From Siniperca chuatsi (taxonomy: Eukaryota > Chordata > Actinopteri > Centrarchiformes > Sinipercidae): DNA of 64,000 bases. Position numbers and translations under genes: made by a program. Numbering within the stretch: position 1 is the first letter of the stretch; each line of letters opens with the position of its first letter. The notes under the pieces are model-generated. The model saw nothing but the letters and a program-made list of their open reading frames with translations. It made no database searches and was not told the origin of the DNA. The stretch covers positions 19,092,001-19,156,000 of the forward strand of contig NC_058047.1 of the NCBI RefSeq assembly GCF_020085105.1, in the 5' to 3' direction. Positions 24,057-64,000 of the stretch are shown here, in pieces.

Positions 24057-24069
24057 TAAATGATACATT
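24057..24069 (+). repeat. Left target-site duplication of the RTE LINE
   Basis: TAAATGATACATT, an exact match to 27249-27261 at the other end of the element. Confidence 0.85.
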
Positions 24070-27000
24070 TGTCGCCCGGATTGGCGCTACCGGGGCCCCA
24101 CCCTGGAGCCAGGCCTGGGGTGGGTGCCCGACGGCGAGCGCCTGGTGGCCGGGCCTTTCCCCACGGGGCCCGGCCGGGCACAGCCCGAAGGAGCGACGTG
24201 GGGCCGTCCTCCCGTGGACCCACCACCCGCAGGGAGGATCCGTAAGGGGCCGGTGCAGAGAGATCTGGGCGGCAGTCGAAGGCAGGGGCTTCGGCGACCA
24301 GATCTCCGGACACAGAAACTGGCTCTAGGGACATGGAATGTCACTTCGGCTGGGGAAGGAGCCTGAGCTTGTGCGGGAGGTTGAGCGTTACCGGCTAGAT
24401 ATAGTCGGCCTCGCCTCCACGCACAGCCTGGGCTCTGGAACCCGTCTCCTCGAGAAGGGCTGGACGCTCCATTTCTCTGGCGTTGCCGGCGGGGAGAGGC
24501 GGCGGGCTGGTGTGGGCCTGCTCATAGCCCCACAGCTCAGCCGTCACGTGTTGGAGTTTACCCCAGTGAACGAGAGGGTCGCGTCCCTCCGCCTCCGGGT
24601 GGGGGACAGGTCTCTCACTGTTGTGGCGGCCTACGGGCCGAACAGCAGTGCAGAGTACCAGGCCTTCTTGGAGTCCCTGGGAGGGTACTAGACAGTGCAC
24701 CACCCGGGACTCCGTTGTTCTACTGGGGACTTCAACGCCCACGTGGCAGCAGCGACAGTGACACCTGGAGAGGGGTAATCGGAAGGAACGGCCCCTGATC
24801 TGAACCCGAGCGGTGTTCAGTTGTTGGACTTCTGTGCTAGTTACAGTTTGTCCATAACTAACACCATGTTCAAGCACAAGGGTGTCCATCAGTGCACGTG
24901 GCACCAGGGCGCCCTAGGCGGAGGTCGATGATCGACTTTGTTGTCGTATCATCTGACCTCCGCCGCGTGTCTTGGACACTCGGGTGAAGAGAGGGGCGGA
25001 GCTGTCAACCGATCACCACCTGGTGGTGAGTTGGATCCGCTGGCGGGGAGGAAGCCGGACAGACTTGGCAGGCCCAAGCGTATCGTGAGGGTCTGCTGGG
25101 AACGTCTGGCGGAGCCCTCTGTCAGCAGGGTCTACAACTCACACCTCGGGGAGAGGTTCTCCCAGATCCCGGGAGGTTGGGGACATTGAGTCCGAGTGGA
25201 CCATGTTTTCCACCTCCATTGTCGATCTGCGCGGCTCGTAGCTGTGGTCGCAAGGTTTCTGGTGCCTGTCGCGGCGGCAATCCCCGAACACGGTGGTGGG
25301 CGCCGGAAGTAAGGGATGCCGTCAGGCTGAAGAAGGAGTCCTATCGGGCCTTGTTGGCTCGTGGGACTCCCGAGGCAGCTGACAGGTACCGGCAGGCTAA
25401 GCGTGCTGCAGCCCGTGCGGTCACAGAGGCAAAAACTCAGGACTGGGAGAGGTTCGGAGAGGCCATGGAGGAGGACTATCGGTCGGCCTCAAAGAAATTC
25501 TGGCAAACCGTCCGGCGGCTCAGGAGGGGGAAGCAGTGCTTCACCAACACCTTGTGCGGTGCGGGTGGAGAGCTGTTGACCTCGACTGGGGATGTTGTCG
25601 GACGGTGGAAGGAATACTTTGAGGATCTCCTCAATCCCGCTGTCACGTCTTCCGAAGAGGAAGCGGAGGCTGGGGACCGGAGGCGGACTCATCCATCACC
25701 CTGGCCGAAGTCACTGAGGTTGTTGGCAAGCTCCTTGGTGGCAAGGCTTCGGGGGTGGATGAGATCCGTCCTGAGTATCTTAAGTCTCTGGATGTTGTGG
25801 GACTGTCTTGGCTGACACGTCTCTGCAACATCGCGTGGCGATCTGGGACAGTGCCTCTGGACTGGCAGACCGGGGTGGTGGTCCCTCTGTATAAGAAGGG
25901 GACCGGAGGGTGTGTTCCAATCACAGAGGATCACACTTCTCAGCCTCCCGGTAAGGTCTATTCCAGGGTACTGGAGAGGAGAATTAGTCCGATAGTCGAA
26001 CCTCGGATTCAGGAGGAGCAGAGTGGTTTTCGTCCCGGTCGTGGAACACTGGACCAGCTCTATACTCTCCATCGGGTGCTCGAGGGTTCATGGGAGTTTG
26101 CCCAACCAGTCCACATGTGCTTTGTGGATCTGGAGAAGGCATTCGACCGTGTGCCCCGGGCGCTTTGTGGGGAGTGCTCTGGGAGTATGGGGTCCGGGGC
26201 CCTTTGCTAAGGGCTGTCCGGTCCCTGTATAACGGGCAGGAGCTGTGTTCGCATTGCCGGCAGTAAGTCAGACCTGTTCCCGGTGCATGTTGGACTCCGC
26301 CAGGGCTGCCCTTTGTCACCGGTTCTGTTCATAATTTATATGGACAGAATTTCTAGGCGCAGTCAGGGGCGGAGGGTGTCGGTTTGGGAACCACAGGATC
26401 TCATCTCTGCTGTTTGCAGATGATGTCGTTCTGATGGCTTCTTCAAACCAGGACCTGCAGCATGCACTGGGACGGTTTGCAGCCGAGTGTGAAGCAGCTG
26501 GGATGAGAATCAGCTCTTCCAAATCTGAGGCCATGGTTCTTGACCGGAAAAAGGTGGTTTGCTCTCTTCGGCGTGGGTGGGGAGTCCTTGCCCCAAGTGG
26601 AGGAGTTTAAGTATCTCGGGGTCTTGTTCACGAGTGAGGGACGGATGGAGCGTGAGATTGACAGGCGGATCGGTGCAGCGTCTGCAGTGATGCGGGCGCT
26701 GTATCGGACCGTTGTGGTAAAGAAGGAGCTGAGTCGAAAGACAAAGCTCTCGATTTACCGGTCAATCTACGCTCCTGCCCTCACCTATGGTCATGAGCTT
26801 TGGGTAGTGACCGAAAGGACAAGATCGCGGATACAAGCGGCCGAAATGGGCTTCCTCCGCCCGAGTGGCTGGGCGCTCCCTTAGAGATAGGGTGAGGAGC
26901 TCAGTCACACGGGGAGCTCGAGTAGAGCCGCTGCTCCTCCACGTCGAGAGGAGCCAGCTGAGGTGGCTAGGGCATCTGATCCGGATGCCTTCCTGGGCGC

Positions 27001-27248
27001 CTCCCTCGGGAGGTGTTCTGGGCATATCCCACCGGGAGGCGGCCCCGGGGAAGACCCAGGACACGCTGGAGGGACTATGTCTCTCGGCTGGCCTGGGAAC
27101 GCCTCGGGATCCCCCCGGAGGAGCTGGAGGAAGTGTCTGGGGCGAAGGAAGTCTGGGAGTCCCTGCTTAGACTGCTGCCCCCGCGACCCGGCCCCGGATA
27201 AGCGGAAGAAGATGGATGGATGGATGGATGGATGGATGGATGGATGGA
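24070..27248 (+). mobile_element. RTE-clade LINE (Rex3-like), near full length, inactive
   Basis: A GC-rich 3.18-kb insert. It encodes, in shifting frames, an APE-type endonuclease (ALGTWNVTSAG, then LRVGDRSLTVVAAYGPNSS, then STGDFNAHV near 24720) and a reverse transcriptase. The RT shows VDEIRPEYLKSLDV, EEQSGFRPGRGTLDQLYTL, CFVDLEKAFDRVP, and the catalytic FADD at 26412-26423. A C-terminal region follows (EEFKYLGVLFTSEGRMEREI, GRRPRGRPRTRWRDYV) and the element ends in RPGPG and a (GGAT)n tail at 27213-27248. A short tandem-repeat tail instead of poly(A) is typical of RTE elements. Several frame changes and in-frame stops, for example just after LESLGGY near 24690, show it is not active. Perfect 13-bp flanking duplications bracket it. 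RTE against another LINE clade is judged from memory of the protein sequence. Confidence 0.88.
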
Positions 27249-27261
27249 TAAATGATACATT
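27249..27261 (+). repeat. Right target-site duplication of the RTE LINE
   Basis: TAAATGATACATT directly follows the GGAT tail and is identical to 24057-24069. Confidence 0.85.
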
Positions 27262-30200
27262 GGCTATGCTCTTCTTTTTACATAAACAACATCACATATT
27301 TTTGACAGGGTTCCCTCAAATTTGGTTACTGAACTGATAATAAGGATTTATTACAGCTGTAAAATAACCCCAACAAAGATGACAGTGACGGCCGATATAT
27401 ATTCTGAAATGTTCATTGGACAATAATGTATTTTGAATAAAAATGAACTTAAATAAAGGACTAAAAACACAAAAAGAAGTAGACTTGACTATACGTGTGT
27501 ATACAACACGTGTGTGTCTAGAAAACATTTTTGTACTGCAATTTCTTTTTGCATGTCTGCCAACATGTATACCAATACGATAAATCTAAGACAATATCCG
27601 CCAATGATATTAAATCATTAAAATATTATTTTAAGCTTTATTGCACGCTCAACTAGGCAGATGCTCTCAGGTTCACGTCCATTCTCTGCCACACCTTGTG
27701 AAGCCCCTGCATGGTTCAGACCTCCCTGTGCATAGTATAATGTAGCTGAAGTATCCTTATATAGCTTATCCTCTTTTTGCAAATATGTCATAGGGCATAC
27801 CTACACATCAGCAGGGCATGTTTTGAATGAGTTTGATGATCCTGCAGTTTTGTTTTTTTCTTTGAAAGAGTCTTTGGGTGACAAAGCAGCAGAACGAGTT
27901 TGGATGAGATTGAGTTATCACCAGCTTGTGTTTGAAAACAGCTCTTTTTATCTCTGTTGTTATCTTGAGACACAGGGATGTCAGATGTGTCTGGACTGAG
28001 AAATCCTGGGCCTCAGGTGACCATTCTGTCCCTGGAAGCCAGGAAGAGCACAATAACTCGAGTTTTCTCTCGAGTGAGTTTGTCATCCTGCTGGCTCGAT
28101 TGGAATGTGTGTTATTGCTTTTGCCATGGGCAACTAGTACTCACTTAGCTGATGCAATCTGTTTCAACTTGGCATTCACTCAATTTTCAGATTGACGTTG
28201 CCATTCAAGACTTTCTGCTGACTTGTTTAACAGTTGTGAGCAGAGGAAGAGACTGTAATAAATATTTCCTGTGGTCGAACATAACCTGACAAAAAACCCC
28301 ATCTACTGTCCAGAATGTTACTAGTTATGAGTTGAACCGCTTATAACTTGAAATACCCCACCAGCCTTAACTAACATTAACCTCTGAAGGCAATGCCTCG
28401 ACTATATAACCTGTTTTGATTTACCAAGATTACCAGTAGTTCAGAATTAAGCTTTGGCAGTTATATGTCAACTCACACTTGAATTCCCCATCCAGTAGAC
28501 TTCAGTGGATTTGATGTAGCTCTTATGCATTTCAAGATGAAGTAGATGTGAGGCCACTCAGTACTTTTAATTAATTGATTTCTAGTCAGAATTGGGCAGA
28601 TGCATTTTGTTTGGCACTGTGCCTGGAGACAAGGTGTATCTACACGACATGTCTAGTCGCTGGAATTTTACTGACTTTTGCTTCTAAAGCACGTGTATAT
28701 GTTTTAAAAAAAAACTTTTGAACAGTTTATAATGTGCTAATAATACTTTGCACCGATAATGCTAAAGCATTAAGTATTTCTCTCTGACTACTATGACTTT
28801 TACGACATTCCACATAGTGGATGAGAAAAGTTGGGCTAGTATGAAGCTAAATAGATTTTTAATAATAAGTTGAAAAAAATTTTTTCCCACTCAGCTATTA
28901 TGACTAGTCTAGTTTTGGGTAAAAAGTTTGAGAAAATTTGAATGTATCAATTATTAGAAATGTATTTTGTACCTAAGCAAAAGTCTTATTTTTCATTAAT
29001 TTTATTAGTGCTTTTTAAAAAAATTTTTATTGAACACAATTTACTTTGGCTTCGGGTTTTGGTTTTTACTTTAGTAAATACACCTATACCAGTTAGTCAA
29101 AACTTTTACTTAAGTATGGTTACCATGGGTGACTTTAACTGCGACTTTTTCTTACATGACTCCTTATGGTTTGTTTTGGTTTGACGGATCCTCTTTCAGC
29201 CTGAAAGTCTGAAGGGCAGTGATGATTATCACATTTCAGAAGTCAACCATATCAGCAGTTGGGGAGTTCAAGAACTACTTTTGTAAACCACCATGATTCA
29301 CTTTCCTGCATCCTTCCTTCTTCACTTTGTCACGTTGCTTGTTTTGCGAGGTGGAAAGGGGTGTTGGTTTCTTTTTTAGAATACTGTCATATTTTAAATG
29401 GCTCTGTCAGCGAGAACGATAATCTATATGGAGGAGGGGCTAAAATGCACTGGAGTGCTGCTGCCACCACTCCCCCCAGAGACAGGTAAAACCAGCCCAG
29501 TCAATCATATACAGGGAAACACTGACAAGGACATTTACAGTGACAAGATCACCTGCACATGGCTGTCAGATGCCTGTGATTTGAACAGCCATGTTATTTA
29601 ACTATTTTATTTAACTATTTACAACAAAAATGACATCAGACATTTTACTTAAAAGCCTTCCAAAGCTACATGTTGAGCATGATTTGGCTTTGCAAGGATA
29701 TTTTACTTCTGTATTAGTATGCAAGAGTGAATGATTTTTTACAAATGTGACTTGATCTTGGAAAACTATGTGTTTAGGCCAATGTGTGTAGTACCAGACC
29801 ACATTAATAGCTAGTCATATTCACAAATCTGAAGACATTAGGAATAGACCTGCAGGGTTTCCCCATGCATTCCTCCCCACTGTGGCTATTTACCTGCTGT
29901 CAAAGGACTAAAATAATCCATGAGCAGAAAACGTAACGATTACTATTAGTGTAATGTTTTGTTCCTCCTTGAAACGCCCGGACGTGGCAGTGAGATCAGA
30001 GTAAGAGATTTCCTATCAAGAAAAAACCTCATTACACAACACACACTGAAGAATTTTAAGCATTATTGTATGAGTCATGTCTTCCCTTTGTAGCAATCGT
30101 TGTTGCCTGCCATTAGCCTTACTAACCAACCCTCAGTAAACATCAAGGTTTTATGACTCTTTATGATGCTTCCCAGCTCGAATGTATTAGACTTTTCTCT

Positions 30201-46300: not shown

Positions 46301-49300
46301 GATACCAGAACTGTATTCTGTCTAATTAATGCAAAACTAGGGGGCGCCATCATGGAATTAAAAAATAAAAATTGCTCTCTTTTGGTTTCTGGTTTCTTCT
46401 CAAAGGAGAGCACAGGACACATGATTTACAGAGACGATATGTTTGCTGTAGCAGACAAAAAAAAAAGCTATTTATTTTCAATCTTTAAAGAGAATAAGAA
46501 TTCCAAAATAGATAAGTACAGTGTAGGAAATGCGGATGCCTGAGCTATAAAAACTATAAAAGTAACACTTTTTCATTTTAATTTTTTAAATTTATAAATT
46601 TTCTCAATTCTCTAAGCAGCATGAATTTAGTTATCTACCTATACTTGATTGTAACTGTACAATATGTTGCCAATGTATCATTCTCTATACATTCTATCAA
46701 TGACAATGAAAAGAAACAAGAAACGTACAGTTGACCAGCTTGACCATAGCAAGCAGGTTGGCATTAAGGACAAACACGAGGGGCTTGGGCCTGCCACTCT
46801 CCAACTCCTGAATAAGCAGCATCTCAGACGGCTGCTCCTCCACAGTGTAATCTGAGGGGGGAAAACACAGTAACACTGCTGTTAGACTGTAGTATCCTCT
46901 ACAACTGCCCACAAATCAAGTATTTTTCTTACATGTAATCCACTGAAGAGCTAGCTTCATGAAAGATTTGTGTTTGAAAATGAAATCATAGCTGTGTAAG
47001 GATTAATAACCATTGTCTAAGCCTGGCCCTAAATACAATGCAAGGACAGGTAACTTTTATTAATAATATTATTTTTAAACGGCCATGTTAAACCAGGCAA
47101 GACAGGGGTCCACATTATTATTTACAGTAACAGAATTAGGGAGTAGTCATGACTTTTAAGTGGGACGAATCAAAATATGCACTCCTGGGAGCTGCCTGGC
47201 TTTACCACAGACTTCTGACATGTCGGGTTAAGTGCTTTGCTCAACAGCACTGTGACGGTGGTCAGTAAAGGAGGGGTGGATGTTTCCCGTCACAGGCTCT
47301 ACTCTGTAGGTCATAGGTCATGTGTACTAGGACAGGGAGTATCCGAGTGCAACAGTTGGATGATGCTGAATATAAATCTGAGAGAAAGTTATAACTCACC
47401 AGTGTGATGTGGACAGAAGCATATAACTTTGTGGAATTATTTTTGCATCAGCCTGGTGTTGGTAGTGCATGATTTTATCAGGTAACAGCGAATAATCACT
47501 TTTATTCAAAACAGACAAGCTTAAAAGTGTTAATTTAGTGTTATTCAGCATTATTCTGTAACTGCTGCTGTCACTTCATTTTGACACTCTTCCGTCATCA
47601 CCAAATTGACACCCTTCTGTTTGCGTCCCTCCTCCTGTCTTTGCACCATGCACACAATGCATGACATGAGAACGGCAAAAAAAACAAAAACAGGCGCAGC
47701 ACATTGTATCTGCACTACAATGAACAAAGAATCCACAAAGTCATTTTGCTAAATCTTTGACTTTCAACCGCAAAATGGATGGAACCTGTCTTACCTCCTT
47801 TGACTCCCGTGGAGGTAAGGATGGGCGGCAGGCCGGCCAGGGGAATGAGGTTGGCAGAGCTGCTCACTAAAGCTGTGGTGCCCCAGCCGTAAGGACCACA
47901 GGCCTCCTAGAGGGGGAGCGAGCCCACTTTTTTTGTCAAATCTATGTTGTACAAACTATCTGACATATAGACACAACTAAATACAACACTGAGATCTTAG
48001 ATTCATTCTCCTCTAAATTATAGAACAACAAATATGCTCTGTGTTATGTTTTGGGTGGTCCTACATTGATATTCGTCCCATGTGGCCGCAAGGCTCTCCT
48101 GATCTGTGGTGAACCCACAGGACCTTTAACCAACCCGCCCAGCGCTCGTCTCATCAGCGGTGAGAACGTAGGCCCTCTGACTGGTGTGGTCGGCGCAGAC
48201 GCTGACTGCTTATTGAGGATTTCATCTGCAAACCACACCCTCCTTTTCCCCCTTGGAGGTGTCGCTGAAGAGAAGAAGTAAGAATTACTTATGCAAATTT
48301 TCATTAAAAAACTGTGAACTTTAACACAAAAAAAAACTGTGCTCACTTTTGATGAGTGTTGAATGACAGGAAACACAAACTCGTCCCTCCTTGCCATCCA
48401 GATGTGTGAGTCTGAACTTCAGATTGGAGCAAAGTGCACAAAAAACCTGATACACACACATACATGCACACACCACATAAGGACAGACACACACATACAT
48501 TTTACACGTCAACTACAAGTCACTTGTTATCAAGTTACTTGAGAACATCAAATTAAATCTTATTTTTTATGCTGCGCAACAAATAAGCTTTACATTTTTC
48601 CTCACCTTCCCACAAGCACGGCAGTGGTGCCTCCTCTTAGTAAACGTAAACTTGACCCCACACTTCATGCAGACCTGCGCCTGAGCATCAGGGACCCACA
48701 CTGGAGCTACCTCCCCGAGGACAGTGCCTCGATCCTTGGACAGAATACCAACAGGGCTCAGCTGGGACTCATTATCAGGATCCACAGGGGAAGCTGCACA
48801 GACCCCCATCGCTCCCTCCCCACTGGCTGCCTGGGCCTTGCTGCTGTCTGTCTCATCTCCTCCACTAGATCTGACCATCTTAAACTGGCTCTGGAGCTCC
48901 CTTGACCCCCTGCCACATGTCTCCTCGTGCGAGAGAGTAGATGGTGCTGCATTCACCTCTGAGCTGCACGACTGCTCTAGCTGCTCCAGCCTGCTCTCCT
49001 CCAGCTCCTTCTCCTCAATCACAGAGTCCTCTTTTGATGGGAGAGCCTGGGGCTTCCTCTCCTCCACCTCCTCCTCCTCCGGCCACGCAGCCTCGGCGGG
49101 GCTCAGCACCAAGGGGCTGGAAGACTTCCCGAAACAACTCTCCCCCCATGTGGAGATGGTGGTCACAGTGCAGCTGCCTTCCTCCAGCTGGGAAGGTGAA
49201 GCGGTTTTGGCAGGATGTTCAGATGGTTTGTGCTCACATGGCCCAAAGCTGCTTATGACTGTCGCATCTGAAGAGGTCTTAGACAGAGATTCTGGTCGTA

Positions 49301-51045
49301 TTTGGCCACATCCCAGTCCTGGTTTTGAAACATCCCCATCTTTGAGAACCAGCAGGCAGGGTCTGTTCAGCCAGTGGTGCTTGGTGTCCTGAAGAGACGG
49401 ATTGTCTCCTTCATCTGTTTCGAGGGGGAGCATGATGATATCATCAACACTCAACACTCAACTTCCCTTTTTCTGTCAAGCGCAGACACACGCACACACA
49501 CACATATAATGCACGCATGCATACATATTAATAAAGACTCATTAGGTGGAAAAGCTGTGTTCACATGTGCTAAGTGGCCATTTAGCAGCATGTGATCATT
49601 TATTTCATGACCCTGAATATACCTCATAGCTTTCAATCATCACTATAAGCAGCATTAGCACTCAGTTGCCCTTGAGAGGTGTGTCGGAGCTGATCACAGA
49701 ACAGACTACATGGTTAAGAAAATAGGAAGAGGTTTGATGTGGACTAAATATTGAAGTAAAACCAATAGTAGTTGTAAAGGCAATTGGTGGACCACATAGC
49801 TGGTGGTTCCCTAGAGAACAAAAGTTCAATAGTGGTTCTGTGTTTAATTGGCTCATGTATAGCATATCATATTGAGTGCCCATATATTACTATGAGAATT
49901 TACAGATGTTGTTTCTATTGTTTTACAGATAAAACCTTTGCTGGTTCTGTGTATTGTCTCATTAGTAGTGTGCCTTTGGTGGGAGACCAAAGACAAATGA
50001 ACAAATGCTTGTGGTACTAAAAAGGTTTGCACATTTGTGTGTGGATGCAAGATTCTTTCCACTGATCACCTGAATGTGCACACCATGTTCAACTGAGCCT
50101 ACTGTAAATGACTCACTGTATAGTCAAATAAGTCATTTGCTTAAGAAATGACTCCATTCATAATCTCAGCACGAGATCCTACATAAAAGCAATTACTTCT
50201 CTGATTACAGCCAATTATTGTTTCAGCACTCTTCCCTCATATGGTAGTCACGCAATAACCATTACTGTAAATTACCAGCCCCCATTGCAAACGGAGTTAA
50301 TGTGTCCCTAGCTGGTGCTTCACCCAGTGATTCATGAATAATTAGCTGTTCAGTTTATACTATTTTGCTGCACTGTAGGATAGCCTATGTGGTGTGGCAC
50401 AAAAATGCAAAAGACTATTGATGGAAAGGATCTAGTTCCATTTGTAAAAACAGGTAGGCCTAAAATAACTAATTTTCCAGGATAAACTGCATTGCAGCTC
50501 CTTCACAAAAAACATAAAAAGAAAGGCGGACCGTGTCGGTCCTGCTGCGGGCTACAGAGTGGAGATTTCCCGAAGCGGCGGCGGGGCTACACCGATCCAG
50601 CTGACTGGAGAATCGCTTCCCGGGACAGTGACGCATTCAACACACGTGCAAATGTTTAAACCGCTTGCAGGCACCGAGGCCGGCGGCAATGCGACACTCA
50701 CCCCGCATCCCGTTACATCAGATCAAGCAGGACACTGAGGTGATGTTTACTGAGATATTTGAAGAGTCTGCAGAGCAGCGCGTGTATGTACGCTACTGTC
50801 TACACACGGGAATGTGCGCAACACACACACGCGTGATGATGCGGACTATGCGCGCAGCCAAATGCTGTATCAGCGGTTTTCTGTGACAAACACAGACGCA
50901 CAGTATCATCATCCTGTAACGCACAGGCAATGAATGGGGAGTAAAGCATCCCCACCCCATCGCAATCAATGCATGTCTTACCCTCAGTTATTTCTCCCAA
51001 AAGGCTTTCATTCTCGTCATCCCGCGCAGAGAAGAACTTCAGCAT
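40411..51045 (-). CDS. zfyve9: SARA-like FYVE protein (zfyve9), complete, lacking the Smad-binding segment
   Basis: Sixteen coding exons on the minus strand: 51045-50982, 49414-48606, 48446-48347, 48264-48065, 47906-47795, 46851-46729, 45998-45843, 45650-45426, 45342-45260, 45130-45026, 44574-44424, 43637-43557, 43258-43096, 42764-42659, 42571-42392, 40572-40411. Total 2820 nt (939 aa), all phases consistent. The FYVE finger spans about 261-324 with [14 protein letters not shown] and GRVC, which bind PI3P on early endosomes. The PP1-docking RVWF is at 333-336. The C-terminal SARA domain is well conserved ([62 protein letters not shown], ending [12 protein letters not shown]). The block [15 protein letters not shown] in exon 2 matches human SARA and rules out endofin. 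Oddities: the N-terminus is about 330 aa shorter than human, and FYVE runs straight into [12 protein letters not shown], so the Smad-binding segment found between them in human is missing. The start [17 protein letters not shown] is the only ATG found that joins in phase. Confidence 0.88.
41290..41827 (+). mobile_element. 3' fragment of a CR1/L2-like (Rex1-type) LINE
   Basis: The plus strand encodes a remnant ending [19 protein letters not shown], the usual C-terminal run of fish LINE reverse transcriptases ([11 protein letters not shown]...SHSLF in relatives). It is followed by an AT-rich 3' UTR ending tgacaataaagctgagcctt and a short 'ttgaaccttgaatc' tail. It is 5' truncated and sits in the last zfyve9 intron, antisense to the gene. 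Confidence 0.6.
43318..43350. repeat. (CA)n microsatellite in a zfyve9 intron
   Basis: Starts about 60 bases upstream (in gene sense) of the acceptor for the exon at 43258. In the sense RNA it is (TG)n close to the polypyrimidine tract. Confidence 0.95.
44669..45015. mobile_element. PIF/Harbinger-type MITE abutting a zfyve9 splice donor
   Basis: The left TIR GGCTGTATTTGGGACCGCC and the right end GGCGGTTTCGAAAACAGCC are inverted repeats of about 19 bases. TTA flanks both ends (44666-44668 and 45016-45018), a 3-bp TWA target-site duplication typical of PIF/Harbinger. The 347-bp interior repeats 'gcatactgcatact'-like motifs and does not code. Its right end lies 10 bases from the donor of the exon 45130-45026. 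Confidence 0.8.
46080..46620. other. Intron sequence of zfyve9 without recognised content
   Basis: Part of the intron between exons 45998-45843 and 46851-46729. It contains a GC-rich patch around 46200-46350 (ccatctacgtagacggat) that may be an old insertion, but I find no TIRs or homology I recognise. Confidence 0.3.
50520..50900 (-). promoter_or_regulatory. CpG-rich patch in zfyve9 intron 1, possible alternative promoter
   Basis: A locally GC-rich stretch (ccgaagcggcggcggggc, gaggccggcggcaatgcg, and repeated GCGCG) lies between coding exons 1 and 2. CpG density is far above the surroundings. It could be an alternative promoter or the downstream part of the main CpG island around 51050. No exon is assigned. 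Confidence 0.35.
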
Positions 51046-51760: not shown

Positions 51761-54700
51761 TCAGTTTGCCTCGTTCTTTGACGCTTCATCGAAGTTCTCC
51801 ACCAGATCTGCAGAACAACACATTGTGAATTATTACGTTGGAAGAAAACAGTGTTATCAGATGCTCTCAGCAGAATTTATGCAGTAGACAAAATACCACT
51901 TCTACAGAGAGGATCTTCTTTATCTTAAAATAAAAGTAAAACATTTAAATGTCTGACTTTTATACATCTAATGGTTCATACCTGGAACATCATCATCTTC
52001 TTCCTCAATGTCCTCTGCCTTTGGTGCCTTGCTGTCGAGAGCTGAGATGAAATGTACAAATAAAAACACATATTATAGCTTTGGCTATTAAATGATTGTA
52101 ACCAGATGTGTAATATTTTCTTAAGGGATAAGTCTGGTGATATTTTATATATTTCTTATTGTCAACAAATCCCTTGAAAAGAGCAAAACCAAAACTTATT
52201 TATCCTACTAACAAATATTTTTGGTGTGGCCTTATTCCTCTGTGCTCCATTGTTGTCCAAAAACTATTAAAAACACATCAGTGAGCCACACATTTACATG
52301 TGAAATGTTGCTTCATTATCATGAACATGGGCACTGTAGTTTTCTTTGAGTCGATCCCACATACACCGTCCTGCTGCTGTAAATACTCACTAGAGCACCA
52401 ATATTAATCTACCACTGAAAATAGTCCCCAACAAATAAACTACTTAGTCCTGGTTGAGTAAAGTTGGCTAAAAACTACAGTGTGCAGCTGTTTTAGGACA
52501 TTATTTTGCCCTTTTAAAAGATGAAACTATATAATTGTGACCGGTTTTTAAACATTTACTATATGTCTTCAGTAGGAACGAATGTGCTTGTGTCTGAGAA
52601 CCACAGAGAGGCTCTACCACATTGTTGGTTTTGGTCTTTTCATGGGATTTGTTTGCAATCAGAAGAAATATATAGAATACCACCAGCCCTATCTTTTCAG
52701 GTACAAAGAAAATCTTGGTCCTAAAGAAGTAAGAACCATTACTATGCTTCTGTAACATGAATGACACTGTATGATGTAAATTTAAGGGATATATTACGGT
52801 GGCCAAGAAGGGTAAACGCACTGCAACTTAAGAAAACACTTGCAAATAGACACAAGCAAATTAAGAAAACATCATCAATTTGACAACACATGTGCAGCAT
52901 TTAGAAAACGTGCTGCAAAGACACAAAACGATAACGGAAGTGTTTCCAGAGGACAATAAAAAGTGCTGAACACGGCTTGGACACGCGTGTTGTTGCCACA
53001 GTTTGAGATGAGACTCATGAAGTTACAGAAGTCAGATCCGTGTATCATCCGCTTATGTTTATGTTGTGGGTTTCTAACTTCTGCTACTGCTCTACTCTGC
53101 GCATGCGCTGAGAAGTGACCGCTGCATGCACCTCCATAGGAAGAGCAACAGAGGAGGGATTCCATGTTATCTAAGCCAAAGGGCACCGCAATAACTAATG
53201 ACTGTTCAGTGCCTGGTTACTACATGTACACCACAAAGTCCAATCTTTCAATCACCCACAACACCTTGCTTCTATCTTCTCCTTGAGAAAAAAGTTGATC
53301 TCCAGTTGCATTAGATATTTTATATAAATGGCTTCAGACCAAATTATTCCATCCCATGCTATTAAAAAAATGTATTTTTAATCTGCACTAGGCAAGACAC
53401 ATGTGTATATATACACACCCCAATCATCCTAAACCACAAAGGAGGAGTTGCAAGAACTTATCTTTCCTTGGAATCAAACTGTAATCAAACTGGTGTTAGT
53501 TACAGACGCTTGCTCCCCCACAGGAAGTGACTAATCTTAACTAAAGGCAAAATATAAACTGTCTACTTAACAGCGGTGAAAACTGAACTTTGCAACATGA
53601 CATCCTCCTCTCTTTTATCCTTTTGTCACAAACAAGCGATAATGCAGCATGCAAAAAAGTGTTTTTCATCACCTTTGGAAGACAGTAACATGCAGATCTG
53701 CATAGTGTAGCCTTAAATCAAGACTCATTACACAACTATAACACACCCTATGTTGGTAAGACACTCCTCACCCTCCTCTTTTACAGTGATTGTGAACTGT
53801 CACAGGTCTAAGAGGTCAAGTGCACCCACCTTGCCGAGGGAACTGTTCTGCCAGTTTGCGCAGGCTGCTGAGGCTGTCTGCTCCCAGCTGACTGAGGATG
53901 CCAGGAAGCATCTCTGTCAGCTGCTTGGTCTCAGCGTGGCCCGTGATGGCGAAGGTGTTGGCAGACAGAGAGGCCTGAACTTTGGGGTTGTTGAAGTGGA
54001 TCACAGTCCCGTCATCCTTGATCATGTTCACCTGAGAAGAGAAGACCGCTCAGTTTTACAGTTATGGCCAAATACTCTGTGATACAATGATCTGAGAAGT
54101 TACTCTAATGCTGGGTAAATGTAAGAAAATTACTTATCAAGAAACAGGATAATTGTGAAAAACCTGAAAGCAGTCTGGTCTACACGGCCACACAAGAATG
54201 CATTCACGCTCACATCAGACCAGATGAACACAATCACATTAATGATAACATTCAGGGTTTCCTTATTCAGAAGATTCAAACCAATTTACCTCCTCAATTC
54301 CAGCAATATTGTTGACAGCCAACTTCTTTAGTGAACTCTGAAGCTTTTTATCATCAGCTGTTGCAGTTCTGTGTACCACCTTCTTCTTCCTGCGCGCAGA
54401 TCCCTAAAACCAAAGCAGACATAAGACTCCAAAATGACTTGAAGCTAGCTATGACTTACAAGAGTGACAGCATTAGGAGAAAGAGAAAGGGCTACAACGT
54501 AGCCTTTGTTGTACAATCTAGTTGTATTACAGTATTTCATACAATGCTCTCAAATCAATACACATATGAATCAAACATGTGATTCTGTTCAAAAGCTGTT
54601 GAAATTCAGTGCTGCAGTCTATAGCTGGCCAGCTTGTTGAGGCTGATACAGGTATGGATATCTGAGAGAGTTAAAACTCTGATATTGATATATCTGACAA

Positions 54701-55366
54701 TTTTACATAAATGTATAAACATAATAAAGTGTTTATGAAGATCACGTAAATTTGGTTCTTAATGTGTTGTAACTAAGATATGTACTGAGCCGGACATTTT
54801 GCAGTTGAAAAATAAACTTGTCCATGGTCTCTGGTGGAAAAACTATGTGATGGTGTCACTGTTTCTAACAACCTGGAACATATCTTTGGCATTTTTGTAT
54901 CGCAATTTCTTGTTATCAATCCGGCACATGAGCCGATAGCAATATATTGGCTGCAGTCTTCGAGGTCAGTTGACATCGCCTGTTTTTGTCAACAAATATT
55001 TTTTAAATCCTACAGCTGTTTTTATTTTGTGTTACACTGCTGAGTAATGACTCTATGTGGGTCAGGCTCCAATAATTTATTTGCAAAGAGTCAAATATTA
55101 TATTTTAATAAATATGAAAGTTAGCTATAATCATCCGTAAGGCACATTCTGAGTCTATTTATTTTGCTGCATTAAAAATGTATAATCATGCGACCATAAC
55201 ATACTGATTTATACTTTGCACATAATTTATTATCAATTTACCTCCTAATTCTTTAATTGTTTAGTCCAAAAATTACATATATATATAAAATATATATAAA
55301 AATATATAAAAAATAACTGAAATTTTTAACCAATTATCAAAATAGTTGCAGATTAATTGTTTGTCG

Positions 55367-55440
<74 letters not shown>

Positions 55441-55559
55441 CCACCTCACCTAACATTGCACATCTTCAATCAAAACAATGGACCACTTCCTGGGTGTCAA
55501 CTTACCTTTCCTCCTATCCGGACCTGGGCTTGAAGTTTAGCCAATTTTTCTTGATTCAT
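51761..55559 (-). CDS. btf3l4: Basic transcription factor 3-like 4 (NAC beta-type subunit), complete, five coding exons
   Basis: Coding exons on the minus strand are 55559-55506 ([18 protein letters not shown]), 54403-54290, 54031-53830, 52041-51982 and 51807-51761. Total 477 nt, 158 aa, the same length as human BTF3L4. The ribosome-anchor motif ARRKKK lies near residue 22, followed by the NAC domain ([20 protein letters not shown], then [20 protein letters not shown], then [12 protein letters not shown]), and an acidic tail [23 protein letters not shown]-beta proteins pair with NAC-alpha at the ribosome exit tunnel. The [13 protein letters not shown] tail and the size favour btf3l4 over btf3. 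Exons 1 and 2 and the right part of coding exon 2 lie inside the left unit of the tandem duplication, and the remaining exons lie outside it. The gene is therefore intact in only one arrangement. Confidence 0.94.
52125..52500 (+). repeat. Unclassified teleost interspersed repeat
   Basis: The block 'aagtctggtgatattttatat ... cttattgtcaacaaatccc' and the downstream 'ctccattgttgtccaaaaac' and 'ctacagtgtgcagctgtttt' segments match a repeat I recall from many percomorph genomes. It sits in the btf3l4 intron between coding exons 3 and 4. The boundaries are approximate. Confidence 0.45.
55316..55370 (+). mobile_element. MITE end fragment (same family as 111-437)
   Basis: ttatcaaaatagttgcagat and attaattgtttgtcgatta form the 3' end of the family. 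It is cut off by the adjacent (CA)n tract. It is duplicated at 59281-59335 as part of the larger unit. Confidence 0.5.
55371..55437. repeat. (CA)n microsatellite in btf3l4 intron 2
   Basis: About 33 dinucleotide units. The copy in unit B is at 59335-59402 and differs slightly in length and flank (cctacc against ccacc). Confidence 0.95.
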
Positions 55560-55848
55560 GTTGTCACCTACAATATGAGCAAATTGTAGATGTTGAAAAC
55601 AAATAAATGTTATGTGTAACTAGCATGCTGCTTGCTTTCCCTGTCGACTGAGCTGCAACATCAGCAATATGAGCTAACCAGGAGACAGAAAGAGTCCAGT
55701 TTCCAAAGATGTAGCTGATTAAAAATACAGTAACAGAAAAAGCACATTTTAACAACAAGGCACACCAATAAAAAGACGTTAAATAGACAAAGATCACGCT
55801 GATGCAATAATAACTGAGACTAGCTCCAACTTGTCAGCAGACAGTCTG

Positions 55849-55851
<3 letters not shown>

Positions 55852-55884
<33 letters not shown>
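55852..55884. repeat. (TG)n microsatellite in btf3l4 intron 1
   Basis: Lies between non-coding exon 1 and the start-codon exon. The unit B copy at 59816-59851 is a few bases longer. Confidence 0.95.
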
Positions 55885-55886
<2 letters not shown>

Positions 55887-56047
55887 GCAGCTGCAGAGAT
55901 GAAAACACAACACAGGGCCTACAGACTGAACACACAGCGTGTCACTGCTCCGCTCAGTCCGACAGCTCTGCTCCGACCGCACACCAACAACCACGCACTC
56001 CACAAACACCGCACATTACACACAAATCAACAGTTAGCATCCCAAAC

Positions 56048-56130
56048 CTGTTCAAATATCGACAGAGGCATGCGCTGCTGAAAGATGGAGCTTATGAGGA
56101 AGAGATTACGTCACATACCAAGCGGATTTT
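56048..56130 (-). promoter_or_regulatory. btf3l4 non-coding exon 1 and promoter (copy A)
   Basis: The donor AACAG|GTTTGG ends exon 1 at 56048. It joins the acceptor TTGTAG|GTGACAACATG just before the start codon. Exon 1 carries an upstream ATG (ATGCCTCTGTCG). Spliced, this uORF reads MPLSIFEQVTT and stops in ATGA, overlapping the btf3l4 start. A CRE-type TGACGTAA (minus strand) lies at 56106-56113 and the surroundings are GC-rich. The TSS is inferred at about 56110. Confidence 0.55.
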
Positions 56131-56592
56131 TCTTCTTCGTGGTTTCCGACCAGCTGGTGGGTTTTGGGCGTCGTGCTGCCACCTACAGCACACTTTATAG
56201 ATTACACTAACAAACGCTACTCCCTATTAAGCATAGACTGTTTATAAAGACACATACTATATATACGGTATACAAGTAATAGTTCTCTTTATTTATTCTG
56301 TCTTTAAATAATAAGTGGATTTTAATGTGAATCCTAAAACTATTGGTTTGATTTTTTCAAGTTAACTTCTTGTTTTTCCATTTCTGTCTACCTATTATAC
56401 TCCCCTCGCCATGGTTGATTAATTATATTTATATATATTTTATTATTATAATTGATTATAACTGAAACACTGAAAAGTCATGCTCCAGACTCCCCCTCTT
56501 AACACACATTACCCTGTGCCATGATAATGGAACATTTTTAAGAGAATTCAACTTGCTCTGTAATATTTTGGATTTGTTTTTCCATTTTCACC

Positions 56593-56598
56593 TTTATT
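56593..56598 (-). terminator. ptgfr poly(A) signal, copy A
   Basis: AATAAA on the minus strand, about 1 kb after the stop codon of the spare ptgfr terminal exon. The equivalent in unit B is at 60563-60568. Confidence 0.45.
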
Positions 56599-57606
56599 AC
56601 ACAGTTCAGAAAAAAGAAATTGAAAAGGTTTCATGAGAGAGAGAGAGAGATGACAAGTTACAAACACACTTGTGCAGAACATTACATTTACAGTAATCAC
56701 CTACAAGCACACACAGGCCCTGTCTTATTTCATTCATGTCACGGTTGTGTGAAAATGACTGGAAACAATGGAGCATGATCTTCTATTGAAAGACAGCATT
56801 ATGTACTGCCAAGATAGACAGATGCTCATAAGCAGATGACTGAACTGTGATGATTTTATATTATCTGTATGCTACAGTCATTTCAACATTGTGTGTCATT
56901 TAGGCTTCAATATTTCTGAAATATTCAATTTTCAAAACTGAGCTCAGTTATCTAACATTATTTTACACATTCTGCTCCAGACATTTGTGTTCTGCTCAAC
57001 CTACATAATTTGCATCAACCATCTGTTCACATTGTAATCCAGAGAAATGCTGAGATCTCACATGTAGCCTGTATTAGCTGATTGATCATAACCATGAATC
57101 CATATCACCTTACCATTTACATGTCAGGGCTACTGCCAGTACCAACAATAACAAAATAAGACAAAGAGAATCAAACATATTTAGTAAAAATTCTTAGATG
57201 AGGTTGAGGTCACAGGCTGGAGCTGCTATATGGAAATTTCAGCAGCGTTAAGAACAAAGACGGAAACGTTTCCAATAGGAAAAGCGCAAAAAAAGAATGA
57301 CTGAACCAACCTAACTGTGAACATTTTAGACAGATTTTCTTCAGAGCTGCTGATGCATAAAACAGAGCTGAAAGTTGAGAACAAAAAGTTAATCCCACAT
57401 TATACAATAGACCACAATGCTGCCAGTTCATGGTGATCTTTTTACAACTCTAAAGAGAGCATGAAAACAAACTTTATAATGGTAGTTTATGTAAGATTCC
57501 AAATGAGCGTCTTGTGATGGGTACAATAACAAAGTTCTCCACATTCTCACAGCTTCTTCCTGTTTTCCTCACAGGTGTTCTCAGATCAAAACACTGTGAC
57601 CAGGGT

Positions 57607-57921
57607 TCAGGTGATATATTTGATCGCAGTGTCTGGCAGAGGGAACCTACCGAGGCAGCGGCAGTCAGACGGGCCAGCACCCGAGTTGCTGGTCTCCATC
57701 GAGCTGCGGAGCATACTGCACTGCCAGCGGTGTCGGTTATGAGACTTTGGGCCCCAGAAGCTGTGGGACAACATGAAGATTTTTCTCAGAACAGCCTTCC
57801 TCAGCAGTATGTAGACCCAGGGGTCCAGGATCTGGTTCCATGTGGCCATACGTACCACCATCAGGAGACTGAAAGACGCAGGCTCATCCTTGGTTCTGGT
57901 GCTCAGCATGATGACACGGAT
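57607..57921 (-). pseudogene. ptgfr: Spare ptgfr terminal exon (copy A)
   Basis: A 315-nt exon with an intact CACCAG acceptor and a full open frame (104 aa plus stop). It starts [17 protein letters not shown], contains the TM7 motif [18 protein letters not shown] and ends PDTAIKYIT. The translation is identical to the functional exon at 61888-61574. It lies downstream of the complete ptgfr gene and is separated from it by a duplicated btf3l4 5' end. It could act as an alternative last exon of ptgfr or be captured by the btf3l4 promoter copy B. It carries no lesion, so 'pseudogene' describes position, not decay. Confidence 0.85.
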
Positions 57922-59280
57922 CTGGTGGAGTGGTCATAAAATAATGGAAAGTGACAAAAAACTTACTGCAGCTACAAAAAGAACTGGTTCAGTTAACATT
58001 GTGTATGAAGAGGCGGTATGTGATTGCAGTTTGTGGGCAAATCCTTTAATAAATACCTTAATAGACATAAATAGACAAATATATGATGAATTGCTTTATT
58101 TAATATAATGTCTATTCATGTCTATTCTTTATTTAATAAATATTAAACTTTTTCATTGCCCTTGCATTGCACTCAGTGTTTTTGTAAGATATCCAAATGT
58201 TTTACTGGAATAATTATAATTATATATTCAGTGTTACACAAAAGAGTCTGGAAGGCAACAATTAATGTTTCCCAACTCATCTTTGAAAATCTGTACCTTT
58301 ACAACAACTCAGACACAGCGTTTGCTTGTTTGTTCTGTGTACCACCTTCTTCTTCCTGCGCGCAGATCCCTAAAACCAAAGCAGACATAAGACTCCAAAA
58401 TGACTTGAAGCTAGCTATGACTTACAAGAGTGACAGCATTAGGAGAAAGAGAAAGGGCTACAACGTAGCCTTTGTTGTACAATCTAGTTGTATTACAGTA
58501 TTTCATACAATGCTCTCAAATCAATACACATATGAATCAAACATGTGATTCTGTTCAAAAGCTGTTGAAATTCAGTGCTGCAGTCTATAGCTGGCCAGCT
58601 TGTTGAGGCTGATACAGGTATGGATATCTGAGAGAGTTAAAACTCTGATATTGATATATCTGACAATTTTACATAAATGTATAAACATAATAAAGTGTTT
58701 ATGAAGATCGCGTAAATTTGGTTCTTAATGTGTTGTAACTAAGATATGTACTGAGCCGGACATTTTGCAGTTGAAAAATAAACTTGTCCATGGTCTCTGG
58801 TGGAAAAACTATGTGATGGTGTCACTGTTTCTAACAACCTGGAACATATCTTTGGCATTTTTGTATCGCAATTTCTTGTTATCAATCCGGCACATGAGCC
58901 GATAGCAATATATTGGCTGCAGTCTTCGAGGTCAGTTGACATCGCCTGTTTTTGTCAACAAATATTTTTTAAATCCTACAGCTGTTTTTATTTTGTGTTA
59001 CACTGCTGAGTAATGACTCTATGTGGGTCAGGCTCCAATAATTTATTTGCAAAGAGTCAAATATTATATTTTAATAAATATGAAAGTTAGCTATAATCAT
59101 CCGTAAAGGCACATTCTGAGTCTATTTATTTTGCTGCATTAAAAATGTATAATCATGCGACCATAACATACTGATTTATACTTTGCACATAATTTATTAT
59201 CAATTTACCTCCTAATTCTTTAATTGTTTAGTCCAAAATTACATATATATATAAAATATATATAAAAATATATAAAAATA

Positions 59281-59331
59281 ACTGAAATTTTTAACCAATT
59301 ATCAAAATAGTTGCAGATTAATTGTTTGTCG

Positions 59332-59335
<4 letters not shown>
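59281..59335 (+). mobile_element. MITE end fragment, copy in unit B
   Basis: Duplicate of 55316-55370. Confidence 0.5.

Positions 59336-59402
<67 letters not shown>
59335..59402. repeat. (CA)n microsatellite, unit B
   Basis: Counterpart of 55371-55437. Confidence 0.95.
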
Positions 59403-59403
<1 letters not shown>

Positions 59404-59812
59404 ACCACCTCACCTAACATTGCACATCTTCAATCAAAACAATGGACCACTTCCTGGGTGTCAACTTACCTTTCCTCCTATCCGGACCTGGGCTTGAAGT
59501 TTAGCCAATTTTTCTTGATTCATGTTGTCACCTACAATATGAGCAAATTGTAGATGTTGAAAACAAATAAATGTTATGTGTAACTAGCATGCTGCTTGCT
59601 TTCCCTGTCGACTGAGCTGCAACATCAGCAATATGAGCTAACCAGGAGACAGAAAGAGTCCAGTTTCCAAAGATGTAGCTGATTAAAAATACAGTAACAG
59701 AAAAAGCACATTTTAACAACAAGGCACACCAATAAAAAGACGTTAAATAGACAAAGATCACGCTGATGCAATAATAACTGAGACTAGCTCCAACTTGTCA
59801 GCAGACAGTCTG

Positions 59813-59815
<3 letters not shown>

Positions 59816-59851
<36 letters not shown>
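59816..59851. repeat. (TG)n microsatellite, unit B
   Basis: Counterpart of 55852-55884, slightly longer. Confidence 0.95.
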
Positions 59852-59852
<1 letters not shown>

Positions 59853-60562
59853 GCAGCTGCAGAGATGAAAACACAACACAGGGCCTACAGACTGAACACA
59901 CAGCGTGTCACTGCTCCGCTCAGTCCGACAGCTCTGCTCCGACCGCACACCAACAACCACGCACTCCACAAACACCGCACATTACACACAAATCAACAGT
60001 TAGCATCCCAAACCTGTTCAAATATCGACAGAGGCATGCGCTGCTGAAAGATGGAGCTTATGAGGAAGAGATTACGTCACATACCAAGCGGATTTTTCTT
60101 CTTCGTGGTTTCCGACCAGCTGGTGGGTTTTGGGCGTCGTGCTGCCACCTACAGCACACTTTATAGATTACACTAACAAACGCTACTCCCCTATTAAGCA
60201 TAGACTGTTTATAAAGACACATACTATATATACGGTATACAAGTAATAGTTCTCTTTATTTATTCTGTCTTTAAATAATAAGTGGATTTTAATGTGGAAT
60301 CCTAAAACTATTGGTTTGATTTTTTTCAAGTTAACTTCTTGTTTTTCCATTTCTGTCTACCTATTATACTCCCCCTCGCCATGGTTGATTAATTATATTT
60401 ATATATATTTTATTATTATAATTGATTATAACTGAAACACTGAAAAGTCATGCTCCAGACTCCCCCTCTTAACACACATTACCCTGTGCCATGATAATGG
60501 AACATTTTTAAGAGAATTCAACTTGCTCTGTAATATTTTGGATTTGTTTTTCCATTTTCACC

Positions 60563-60568
60563 TTTATT
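60563..60568 (-). terminator. ptgfr poly(A) signal
   Basis: AATAAA on the minus strand, about 1 kb after the ptgfr stop codon and roughly 0.5 kb before the duplicated btf3l4 promoter. Confidence 0.45.
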
Positions 60569-61573
60569 ACACAGTTCAGAAAAAAGAAATTGAAAAGGTT
60601 TCATGAGAGAGAGAGAGAGATGACAAGTTACAAACACACTTGTGCAGAACATTACATTTACAGTAATCACCTACAAGCACACACAGGCCCTGTCTTATTT
60701 CATTCATGTCACGGTTGTGTGAAAATGACTGGAAACAATGGAGCATGATCTTCTATTGAAAGACAGCATTATGTACTGCCAAGATAGACAGATGCTCATA
60801 AGCAGATGACTGAACTGTGATGATTTTATATTATCTGTATGCTACAGTCATTTCAACATTGTGTGTCATTTAGGCTTCAATATTTCTGAAATATTCAATT
60901 TTCAAAACTGAGCTCAGTTATCTAACATTATTTTACACATTCTGCTCCAGACATTTGTGTTCTGCTCAACCTACATAATTTGCATCAACCATCTGTTCAC
61001 ATTGTAATCCAGAGAAATGCTGAGATCTCACATGTAGCCTGTATTAGCTGATTGATCATAACCATGAATCCATATCACCTTACCATTTACATGTCAGGCT
61101 ACTGCCAGTACCAACAATAACAAAATAAGACAAAGAGAATCAAACATATTTAGTAAAAATTCTTAGATGAGGTTGAGGTCACAGGCTGGAGCTGCTATAT
61201 GGAAATTTCAGCAGCGTTAAGAACAAAGACGGAAACGTTTCCAATAGGAAAAGCGCAAAAAGAATGACTGAACCAACCTAACTGTGAACATTTTAGACAG
61301 ATTTTCTTCAGAGCTGCTGATGCATAAAACAGAGCTGAAAGTTGAGAACAAAAAGTTAATCCCACATTATACAATAGACCACAATGCTGCCAGTTCATGG
61401 TGATCTTTTTACAACTCTAAAGAGAGCATGAAAACAAACTTTATAATGGTAGTTTATGTAAGATTCCAAATGAGCGTCTTGTGATGGGTACAATAACAAA
61501 GTTCTCCACATTCTCACAGCTTCTTCCTGTTTTCCTCACAGGTGTTCTCAGATCAAAACACTGTGACCAGGGT

Positions 61574-64000
61574 TCAGGTGATATATTTGATCGCAGTGTC
61601 TGGCAGAGGGAACCTACCGAGGCAGCGGCAGTCAGACGGGCCAGCACCCGAGTTGCTGGTCTCCATCGAGCTGCGGAGCATACTGCACTGCCAGCGGTGT
61701 CGGTTATGAGACTTTGGGCCCCAGAAGCTGTGGGACAACATGAAGATTTTTCTCAGAACAGCCTTCCTCAGCAGTATGTAGACCCAGGGGTCCAGGATCT
61801 GGTTCCATGTGGCCATACGTACCACCATCAGGAGACTGAAAGACGCAGGCTCATCCTTGGTTCTGGTGCTCAGCATGATGACACGGATCTGGTGGAGTGG
61901 TCATAAAATAATGGAAAGTGACAAAAAACTTACTGCAGCTACAAAAAGAACTGGTTCAGTTAACATTGTGTATGAAGAGGCGGTATGTGATTGCAGTTTG
62001 TGGGCAAATCCTTTAATAAATACCTTAATAGACATAAATAGACAAATATATGATGAATTGCTTTATTTAATATAATGTCTATTCATGTCTATTCTTTATT
62101 TAATAAATATTAAACTTTTTCATTGCCCTTGCATTGCACTCAGTGTTTTTGTAAGATATCCAAATGTTTTACTGGAATAATTATAATTATATATTCAGTG
62201 TTACACAAAAGAGTCTGGAAGGCAACAATTAATGTTTCCCAACTCATCTTTGAAAATCTGTACCTTTACAACAACTCAGACACAGCGTTTGCTTGTTTTC
62301 AAATACCACTTCAATCTCACTCAATCATGTTATTTCAATGTACACACCAAGGTTTGTTTTCATTGGACTTTCATTATGATAAATTATGTGCTATAGGTCA
62401 CACCCATTGCAAAGTTTACTCACAGTAAACAAAACAGCATTGGGGAAAAACTGTTTTTAAATAAGCTTAAGAAAATTGTCAGCGCACTTCGTTGCCATAA
62501 GTACCATACATAGGTGAGAAATGTGATCAGTGTTTGGCCCTGTGACTGTAGTGGATGAGGAGTGTATAGAGCTGATGGTGTAGATCACAGTGTACTTTTG
62601 GAGCAGCAGTAAGAGGTATGAAGAGAACATGTTATAGAGAGCCCATTTGTAGAGCAGGAGAAGGAGCATGAAATGCATTATTTGTTCAGCCAGGAGTAAG
62701 TGGATATTTTGAAGGGGAGGGGTGTGTGTAGGTGTGCTCCAGAGGTCTGAGGATTTTAGAGGAAAGGGTTAGTAAACAGTAAACAGTATGAGGTAAACAG
62801 TAAATGGGAAGGACAGATTGAAAATGAAAAGCACAAAAACCTTTAAAACAAGCTTTACTTGTGTCATCTTTTCATCACACATCTCAGATAATAAAACCTG
62901 CCAGGTTTCTCAAAACCCATTTCGCTGTCTCTGAAAGTCACTTAGTACTTGCCAATGTTTAAAATCCATGTTACACTGGTAAATAGGAGATGTGGTTTGA
63001 AGATCAGAAAAAATGATGGTCTGTGGGAATGTAAATGTAATCATGATAATTACTATCACTTTGAGATAAATTAATGGCTAATATATATAAATTAAATAGA
63101 AAATAAATAGAGATCTGAGAAATAGAAATCTGGATTAATAAGGAGTTCCAACTTATTCTCGTGGCTTTAGGCAGTAGGGAATGTGCGACTCTTAGCTGAC
63201 ACAACACCTAGAATGAGCTCCTGCAGTGTCAACCTGCCAACCTGTGATTTTTTAGTCATATAGCAGAGTTAAAGGTCTACTGAGGAGAAATTCTTACCAG
63301 TAATGGGCCCCAGCACACGCAGGACACCAACATGATAGCCAGCAGCTGGCAGATCATCTCTATGTGGTAGGACGTGCCTCTGCAGTGATGCTTGCGGCGC
63401 AGTCTGGCCTGCAGCAGAGCACAGCTTGTCAGAGTATTGCACACAATCGAGAGCAGTAGGGCCAGCAGCCCCAACAGAGAGAAAAGCAGAGGCAGGAGCA
63501 CATCCAGCCAGTCTTTGGGTTCCCCCATATGGAAGAAGCACCAGCTCCTGGAGCTCTGAACCTTGTAGGGCCTCCACAGCAGCACAGGCAGCACAGCCAC
63601 CAGGGCAGCGAGCAGCCAGGTGAGTCCCAGCAGCCTTTTCATGTGGTGGGAAGCCAATGTTGTCGAGTGGAAGATAGGCCTGGTGACTCCAATGCAGCGC
63701 TCCACCGCCATGGCACTCCCCAGGAACAAGGGGCTCAGGCCAAAGAACACCATGCACGCCCCAAAGACACTGCACACGATGTGGTGAGGGTCAAACGTTT
63801 CCCATTTCTTGTGCGAGCTGTAGACAAAAAGCACCAGGGAGCCATTGATGAGGTGACCCAGCAGGTCTGTGACCACCAGGCTGCTGGCAAACAGCAGGAA
63901 GGACGCCTTGGACTTGATCCGGATGCGGTTGTAAGATTTGACGAGGATGAAAAGGGCGAAGCTGTTGGAGAAGATGCCCACAGTCATGGAGATGGCAGAG
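61574..64000 (-). CDS. ptgfr: Prostaglandin F2-alpha receptor, two exons, N-terminus beyond window edge
   Basis: The upstream coding exon runs from beyond 64000 to 63298, with donor CTG|GTAAGA. The terminal exon is 61888-61574 (phase 0, 104 aa plus stop). The rhodopsin-type prostanoid receptor pattern is clear: TM1 [18 protein letters not shown]2 [22 protein letters not shown]3 with [14 protein letters not shown], the extracellular WCFFHMG, TM6 [14 protein letters not shown], and TM7 with DPWVYILL in place of NPxxY. ERC in place of DRY and DPxxY are prostanoid-receptor traits. FP-type identity rests on FGHLINGxxxxFVY-, KDW- and CNxxT-like stretches shared with human PTGFR. By family knowledge it couples to Gq and Ca2+ in smooth muscle and ovary. 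The exon split before TM7 matches human PTGFR. The first roughly 30 residues lie outside the window. Confidence 0.88.
62299..63297 (-). other. ptgfr intron, single-copy part
   Basis: Sequence between the duplication's right boundary and the donor of the TM1-6 exon. AT-rich, with no recognised repeat or RNA. Confidence 0.5.

What the first reader, a model, noticed from the sequence alone, without database searches (positions are those of the whole stretch)
57607..60080. The duplication places a btf3l4 promoter and start exon in front of a phase-compatible ptgfr terminal exon
The btf3l4 start exon (59523-59470) ends on a whole codon (phase 0), and the ptgfr terminal exon (57921-57607) begins on a whole codon. 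The truncated btf3l4 exon between them has lost its donor and is likely to be skipped. Direct splicing would give a 122-residue protein: 18 residues of the NAC-beta N-terminus plus 104 residues with receptor TM7 and cytoplasmic tail. This is a candidate newborn chimeric gene driven by a housekeeping promoter.
Basis: partly seen in the sequence, partly recalled or inferred. Interest (0 to 1): 0.85.

Follow-up and report, generated by a model that had tools for sequence, protein, structure and literature searches.

The report
Near-identical 4-kb repeat, possible assembly error
In this animal genome assembly a stretch of about 4,000 letters appears twice in a row, which on paper puts the start of one gene before the end of another, but the two copies are so alike that an assembly error or a very recent harmless duplication is far more likely than a new gene.

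Summary

"Newborn chimeric gene" is not supported. The copies differ by 1 substitution and 11 tiny indels, 9 in homopolymer length, while a 34-unit AC repeat is identical. I read this as long-read error, not evolution. The repeat is either a same-haplotype assembly duplication (about 0.52) or a very young true tandem duplication (about 0.45); raw reads, not held here, would decide. Both parent genes stay whole (158 and 369 aa), and the extra start exon could equally splice to intact btf3l4. The fusion would lack the RRKKK stretch of NAC-beta and most of the receptor. Phase match by chance is about one in three (recalled). Under either reading the kind is known: false chimeric gain (PMC9516828, passages and one section) or tandem-duplication chimera (PMC5460883, passages).

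The parts
54366..58331 (.). copy 1 of the repeat unit (3,966 bases)
   Evidence: self-alignment
58332..62298 (.). copy 2 of the repeat unit (3,967 bases), abutting copy 1 with no N and no microhomology
63298..64000 (-). ptgfr upstream coding exon; it runs on 92 bases past the window end into the adjoining locus L009 (start codon at 64092 in that numbering); ends phase 0
61574..61888 (-). ptgfr terminal coding exon, copy 2; with the upstream exon gives a complete 369-aa receptor
59470..59523 (-). btf3l4 first coding exon, copy 2 (the extra one), 18 codons, donor AAG|GTAAGT
58332..58369 (-). btf3l4 second coding exon cut to 38 of 114 bases, donor lost; start exon plus read-through of it stops after 48 residues
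57607..57921 (-). ptgfr terminal coding exon, copy 1 (the extra one), 104 codons and stop
   Evidence: matches prostaglandin F2-alpha receptor chains, best E 1.8e-14
55506..55559 (-). btf3l4 first coding exon, copy 1, belonging to the intact gene
51761..54403 (-). remaining four coding exons of intact btf3l4 (54403-54290, 54031-53830, 52041-51982, 51807-51761); full protein 158 aa
   Evidence: first 100 residues match BTF3 chains, best E 1.8e-53

Best explanation
A same-haplotype assembly duplication: about 4 kb of overlap between two adjoining assembled pieces was kept twice, each copy carrying its own uncorrected long-read indels. In the animal there would be one ptgfr terminal exon followed by one btf3l4 gene, and the chimera would exist only on paper. 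Shown: blunt gap-free repeat, differences of error type, no visible evolutionary divergence. Inferred: that the second copy is absent from the genome, and how the assembly went wrong. The wider statement, that the stretch is no functional new gene whether the repeat is false or real, I hold at about 0.95.
For: 1 substitution against 11 indels of 1-2 bases: 9 change a homopolymer (one of them G to GG), 1 a TG unit, 1 is a single inserted T; 5 make copy 1 longer and 6 make copy 2 longer. The other five repeat pairs shorter than 3 kb found in the 264 kb examined show 47 substitutions to 16 gap openings, Fisher p 2.5e-5; the four pairs at least 95% alike, 25 to 5, p 1.0e-5. The 34-unit AC repeat is identical in both copies, although such repeats mutate fastest (recalled); so the short-homopolymer indels are unlikely to be mutations. 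A multi-copy repeat nearby with a reverse-transcriptase domain also differs from its neighbour copy mostly by indels, 38 to 26 substitutions, which would fit a long-read assembly poorly corrected in multi-copy sequence. The two coding sequences I spliced, btf3l4 and ptgfr, are free of frameshifts (parts of both lie inside the repeat). False duplications that create chimeric exon joins are documented (PMC9516828, passages and section 8 seen).
Against: [quoted passage not shown] Only one substitution argues against two divergent alleles, which is the main source of false duplication in that paper. No other pair in the 264 kb (7 rows, of which this is one) abuts at distance 0, so the assembly is not visibly full of such cases. 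The residual indels would also be expected if a real identical duplication defeated short-read correction. The control is small: four of the five comparison pairs touch one stretch of about 5 kb, so they are not independent; and the reverse-transcriptase repeat differs from this duplication too (p 0.047), so it is only a loose parallel.
Confidence: 0.52

Rival explanations
1. A real, extremely young and perhaps segregating tandem duplication whose breakpoints fall in btf3l4 coding exon 2 and in the ptgfr intron. Both parents stay whole. The middle unit is a by-product: its start exon may be spliced to the truncated exon (48-residue dead end), to the ptgfr exon (122 residues) or on to intact btf3l4 exon 2 (normal protein). 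No selected function.
For: Perfect head-to-tail abutment without N; both parents reconstruct as complete proteins of 158 and 369 aa; duplications ignoring gene boundaries make such chimeras in Drosophila yakuba, 76 among 15 lines, 24 of them with raised expression (PMC5460883, passages seen).
Against: Identity of the 34-unit AC repeat and a single substitution ask for an age of perhaps a thousand generations or less (rates recalled); blunt ends without microhomology are the less common outcome for real tandem duplications (recalled).
Confidence: 0.45
2. A real newborn chimeric gene: the btf3l4 promoter drives a spliced mRNA 59470 to 57921 whose 122-residue single-helix product has a function under selection.
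For: Donor is strong (8.56 bits in a recalled matrix), the acceptor is the natural ptgfr one, the frame is open, and no donor above 4 bits follows the truncated exon.
Against: No transcript data held; no divergence that could show selection; the product lacks RRKKK, encoded by the skipped exon, and by inference six of seven receptor helices; the truncated exon keeps its acceptor and has AATAAA/ATTAAA-type hexamers beyond it (five plus-strand TTTATT/TTTAAT hits, 58045-58132).
Confidence: 0.02
3. Heterotype false duplication: the two alleles of one locus assembled in a row.
For: Main source of false duplication in PMC9516828 (abstract and passages).
Against: Only one substitution in 3,966 bases; two haplotypes would usually differ at more sites (heterozygosity recalled, not measured here).
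Confidence: 0.01

Closest known systems
False chimeric gain from duplication errors in vertebrate assemblies (PMC9516828; passages and section 8 seen)
   Same: Exons of one gene placed by an adjacent duplication next to or into a neighbouring gene; excess of sequence errors in the copies
   Different: No assembly gap between the copies here; near-absence of substitutions, unlike the two-allele cases
Tandem-duplication chimeras of Drosophila yakuba (PMC5460883; passages seen)
   Different: Here there is no read, population or RNA evidence; the duplication is not known to be real
PTGFR (prostaglandin F2-alpha receptor) and BTF3L4 (NAC beta-like) parent genes
   Same: Both complete and ordinary in this window and its edge
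   Different: The chimera would hold only 18 residues of one and the last 104 of the other

Membership tests
False duplication / false chimeric gain | Gap or unsupported join between the copies | tested here: inconclusive
   No N at 58331/58332; an unsupported join without N cannot be seen without reads. The paper calls gaps usual, not universal.
False duplication / false chimeric gain | Haploid or lower read depth over the copies; discordant read pairs | not testable with these tools
   no reads held
False duplication / false chimeric gain | Excess of sequence errors in the copies | tested here: met
   by proxy only: 11 indels to 1 substitution, mostly homopolymer length, against 47:16 in five other repeat pairs; a real identical duplication could show the same
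Chimeric gene by tandem duplication | 5' end of one gene joined to 3' end of another on the same strand | tested here: met
   on the assembly as given; both parents also intact
Chimeric gene by tandem duplication | Duplication physically present | not testable with these tools
   needs spanning reads or PCR
Chimeric gene by tandem duplication | Chimeric transcript made | not testable with these tools
   no RNA data held
Prostaglandin F receptor (parent exon) | Sequence match to solved FP receptor | tested here: met
   8iuk, E 1.8e-14, query residues 19-79 of 104; 16 sequences matched, the best three named F2-alpha receptor
NAC beta (BTF3/BTF3L4, parent gene) | Sequence match to BTF3 chains | tested here: met
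   8p2k, E 1.8e-53 over residues 1-99; all 7 matches named BTF3

The most novel reading that the evidence does not exclude
The duplication is real, perhaps under a thousand generations old and still segregating, and a housekeeping promoter already drives a spliced btf3l4-ptgfr mRNA encoding a 122-residue single-helix protein: a chimeric gene caught at birth, before any mutation.
Probability: 0.15. Interest if true: 0.4.

Novelty: new member of a known kind. Interest (0 to 1): 0.12.

Why it matters
If false, it is a caution: a neat phase-compatible fusion can be read off an assembly error, and annotation could call it a gene. If real, it would be one more very young tandem-duplication chimera, useful mainly because both parents and both breakpoints are fully visible. 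Neither changes what is known about how new genes arise.

Tried and rejected
Alleles assembled in a row: thought unlikely because only one substitution separates the copies. Recombination between flanking repeats: rejected, no shared base at the breakpoints. Inferring an age from the 0.35% difference: rejected, the differences are of error type. Using the single substitution (54744/58710), at or near the edge of an interspersed repeat, to find the ancestral state: uninformative; of 5 relatives, 4 aligned there and all 4 carry a third base. Cryptic donors in the truncated exon: two GT sites were looked at (24 and 73 bases into it); neither reaches 4 bits. A genome-wide base rate of gap-free duplications was planned and could not be measured: only 264 kb (224 kb around and including the window, with 7,500 N, plus 40 kb of another contig) was examined. 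Rfam families at 23500-28500: 0 matches. Pfam: 11 open frames of the window scanned in two calls, 2 with a match (FYVE, RVT_1). Literature: btf3l4 with ptgfr, one paper, on mouse implantation (listing only); at least 3 of 4 terms btf3l4, chimeric transcript, fusion, ptgfr, none; some searches were seen as listings, from which two papers were opened at passages and one section. In one search two exon boundaries were set one base off and gave broken translations; corrected. One search used 55505-55558 for copy 1 of the start exon and so translated it out of frame; the right span is 55506-55559.

Full report
What is there. A self-comparison of the 64-kb window, listing matches over 200 bases, finds one long direct repeat: 54366-58331 and 58332-62298, 99.65% identical, directly abutting. 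The host assembly has 718,788,923 bases in 65 contigs, the window lying in contig 6; that it is a fish is my inference, and the species was not identified. On the minus strand the order is ptgfr upstream exon (ending at 63298, starting 92 bases past the window), ptgfr terminal exon copy 2 (61888-61574), btf3l4 first coding exon copy 2 (59523-59470), btf3l4 second coding exon cut to 38 of 114 bases (58369-58332), ptgfr terminal exon copy 1 (57921-57607), btf3l4 first coding exon copy 1 (55559-55506) and the rest of btf3l4. The terminal exon matches solved prostaglandin F2-alpha receptors (E 1.8e-14) and the NAC-beta reading of btf3l4 is sound (E 1.8e-53).

Both parents are whole. Spliced, BTF3L4 is 158 residues and PTGFR 369 residues, each with one terminal stop. 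Using the extra btf3l4 start exon instead gives an identical BTF3L4 coding sequence, and using the extra ptgfr terminal exon an identical receptor. So even a real duplication adds redundant exons first, and a chimera only if splicing prefers it. The intervening distances are 1,548 bases from the extra donor to the extra ptgfr acceptor and 5,066 to intact btf3l4 exon 2, which does favour the chimera.

What the differences say. Between the copies there are 1 substitution and 11 indels; 9 change the length of a homopolymer, 1 a TG repeat by one unit, 1 inserts a T. The 34-unit AC repeat is the same length in both. In evolved sequence substitutions outnumber small indels and long AC repeats change first (recalled). 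In the 264 kb examined (including 7,500 N), the other five repeat pairs shorter than 3 kb gave 47 substitutions to 16 gap openings (7:1, 7:1, 22:11, 7:1, 4:2), Fisher p 2.5e-5 against 1:11; four of the five touch one stretch, so the test overstates its independence. I read both cases as long-read consensus errors that short-read correction could not reach in multi-copy sequence. That is inference: the ratio of this repeat still differs from 1:11 (p 0.047). The reading removes any measured divergence; it does not by itself decide whether the second copy is real.

False or real. For an artefact: no clear real divergence, indels of error type in both directions (5 and 6), blunt breakpoints without homology, and the documented occurrence of false duplications including false chimeric gains (PMC9516828). 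Against: no N at the junction, near-absence of substitutions where the usual false duplication joins two alleles, and no second abutting pair in the 264 kb. A real duplication must be very young. I put the artefact at 0.52 and a real young duplication at 0.45 in its by-product form, with 0.02 for a functional gene.

If real, what would it do? The extra start exon has a strong donor, and no donor above 4 bits follows the truncated exon before the ptgfr acceptor, so exon skipping to the ptgfr exon is plausible. Competing outcomes are a 48-residue dead end through the truncated exon, whose acceptor is intact and which has poly(A)-type hexamers beyond it, and ordinary btf3l4. The 122-residue product would join 18 residues that do not include RRKKK (encoded by the skipped exon) to TM7 and tail of a receptor (helix assignment recalled). 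I know of no function that fits. In Drosophila yakuba 24 of 76 tandem-duplication chimeras showed raised expression (PMC5460883), so a transcript would not be surprising.

Verdict. Observation confirmed; interpretation supported only in its geometry. It is a member of a known kind under either reading and of low interest.

Noticed in passing
window 24164-27229 and L009 3563-6626: GC-rich (0.605 in 24001-26000) multi-copy repeat with a reverse-transcriptase domain, about 40 places 97-99% identical in the genome (capped); the two neighbouring copies, 40 kb apart, differ more by indels than by substitutions.
   Followed up: partly
window 48567-49457, minus strand: Large open frame with a FYVE zinc finger (Pfam E 5.4e-12) beside btf3l4, probably zfyve9; the neighbourhood is recalled to be the same in human.
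   Followed up: no
window 58624-58913: Interspersed repeat within the unit: 37 of 42 rows (capped at 40 scored candidates) match here at 73-84% identity.
   Followed up: partly
window 59524-60150: The btf3l4 first coding exon is preceded by an acceptor-like TTGTAG and a likely 5'UTR exon ending near 60085 with GTATGT (by inspection); so the promoter probably lies beyond the finding's end coordinate.
   Followed up: partly
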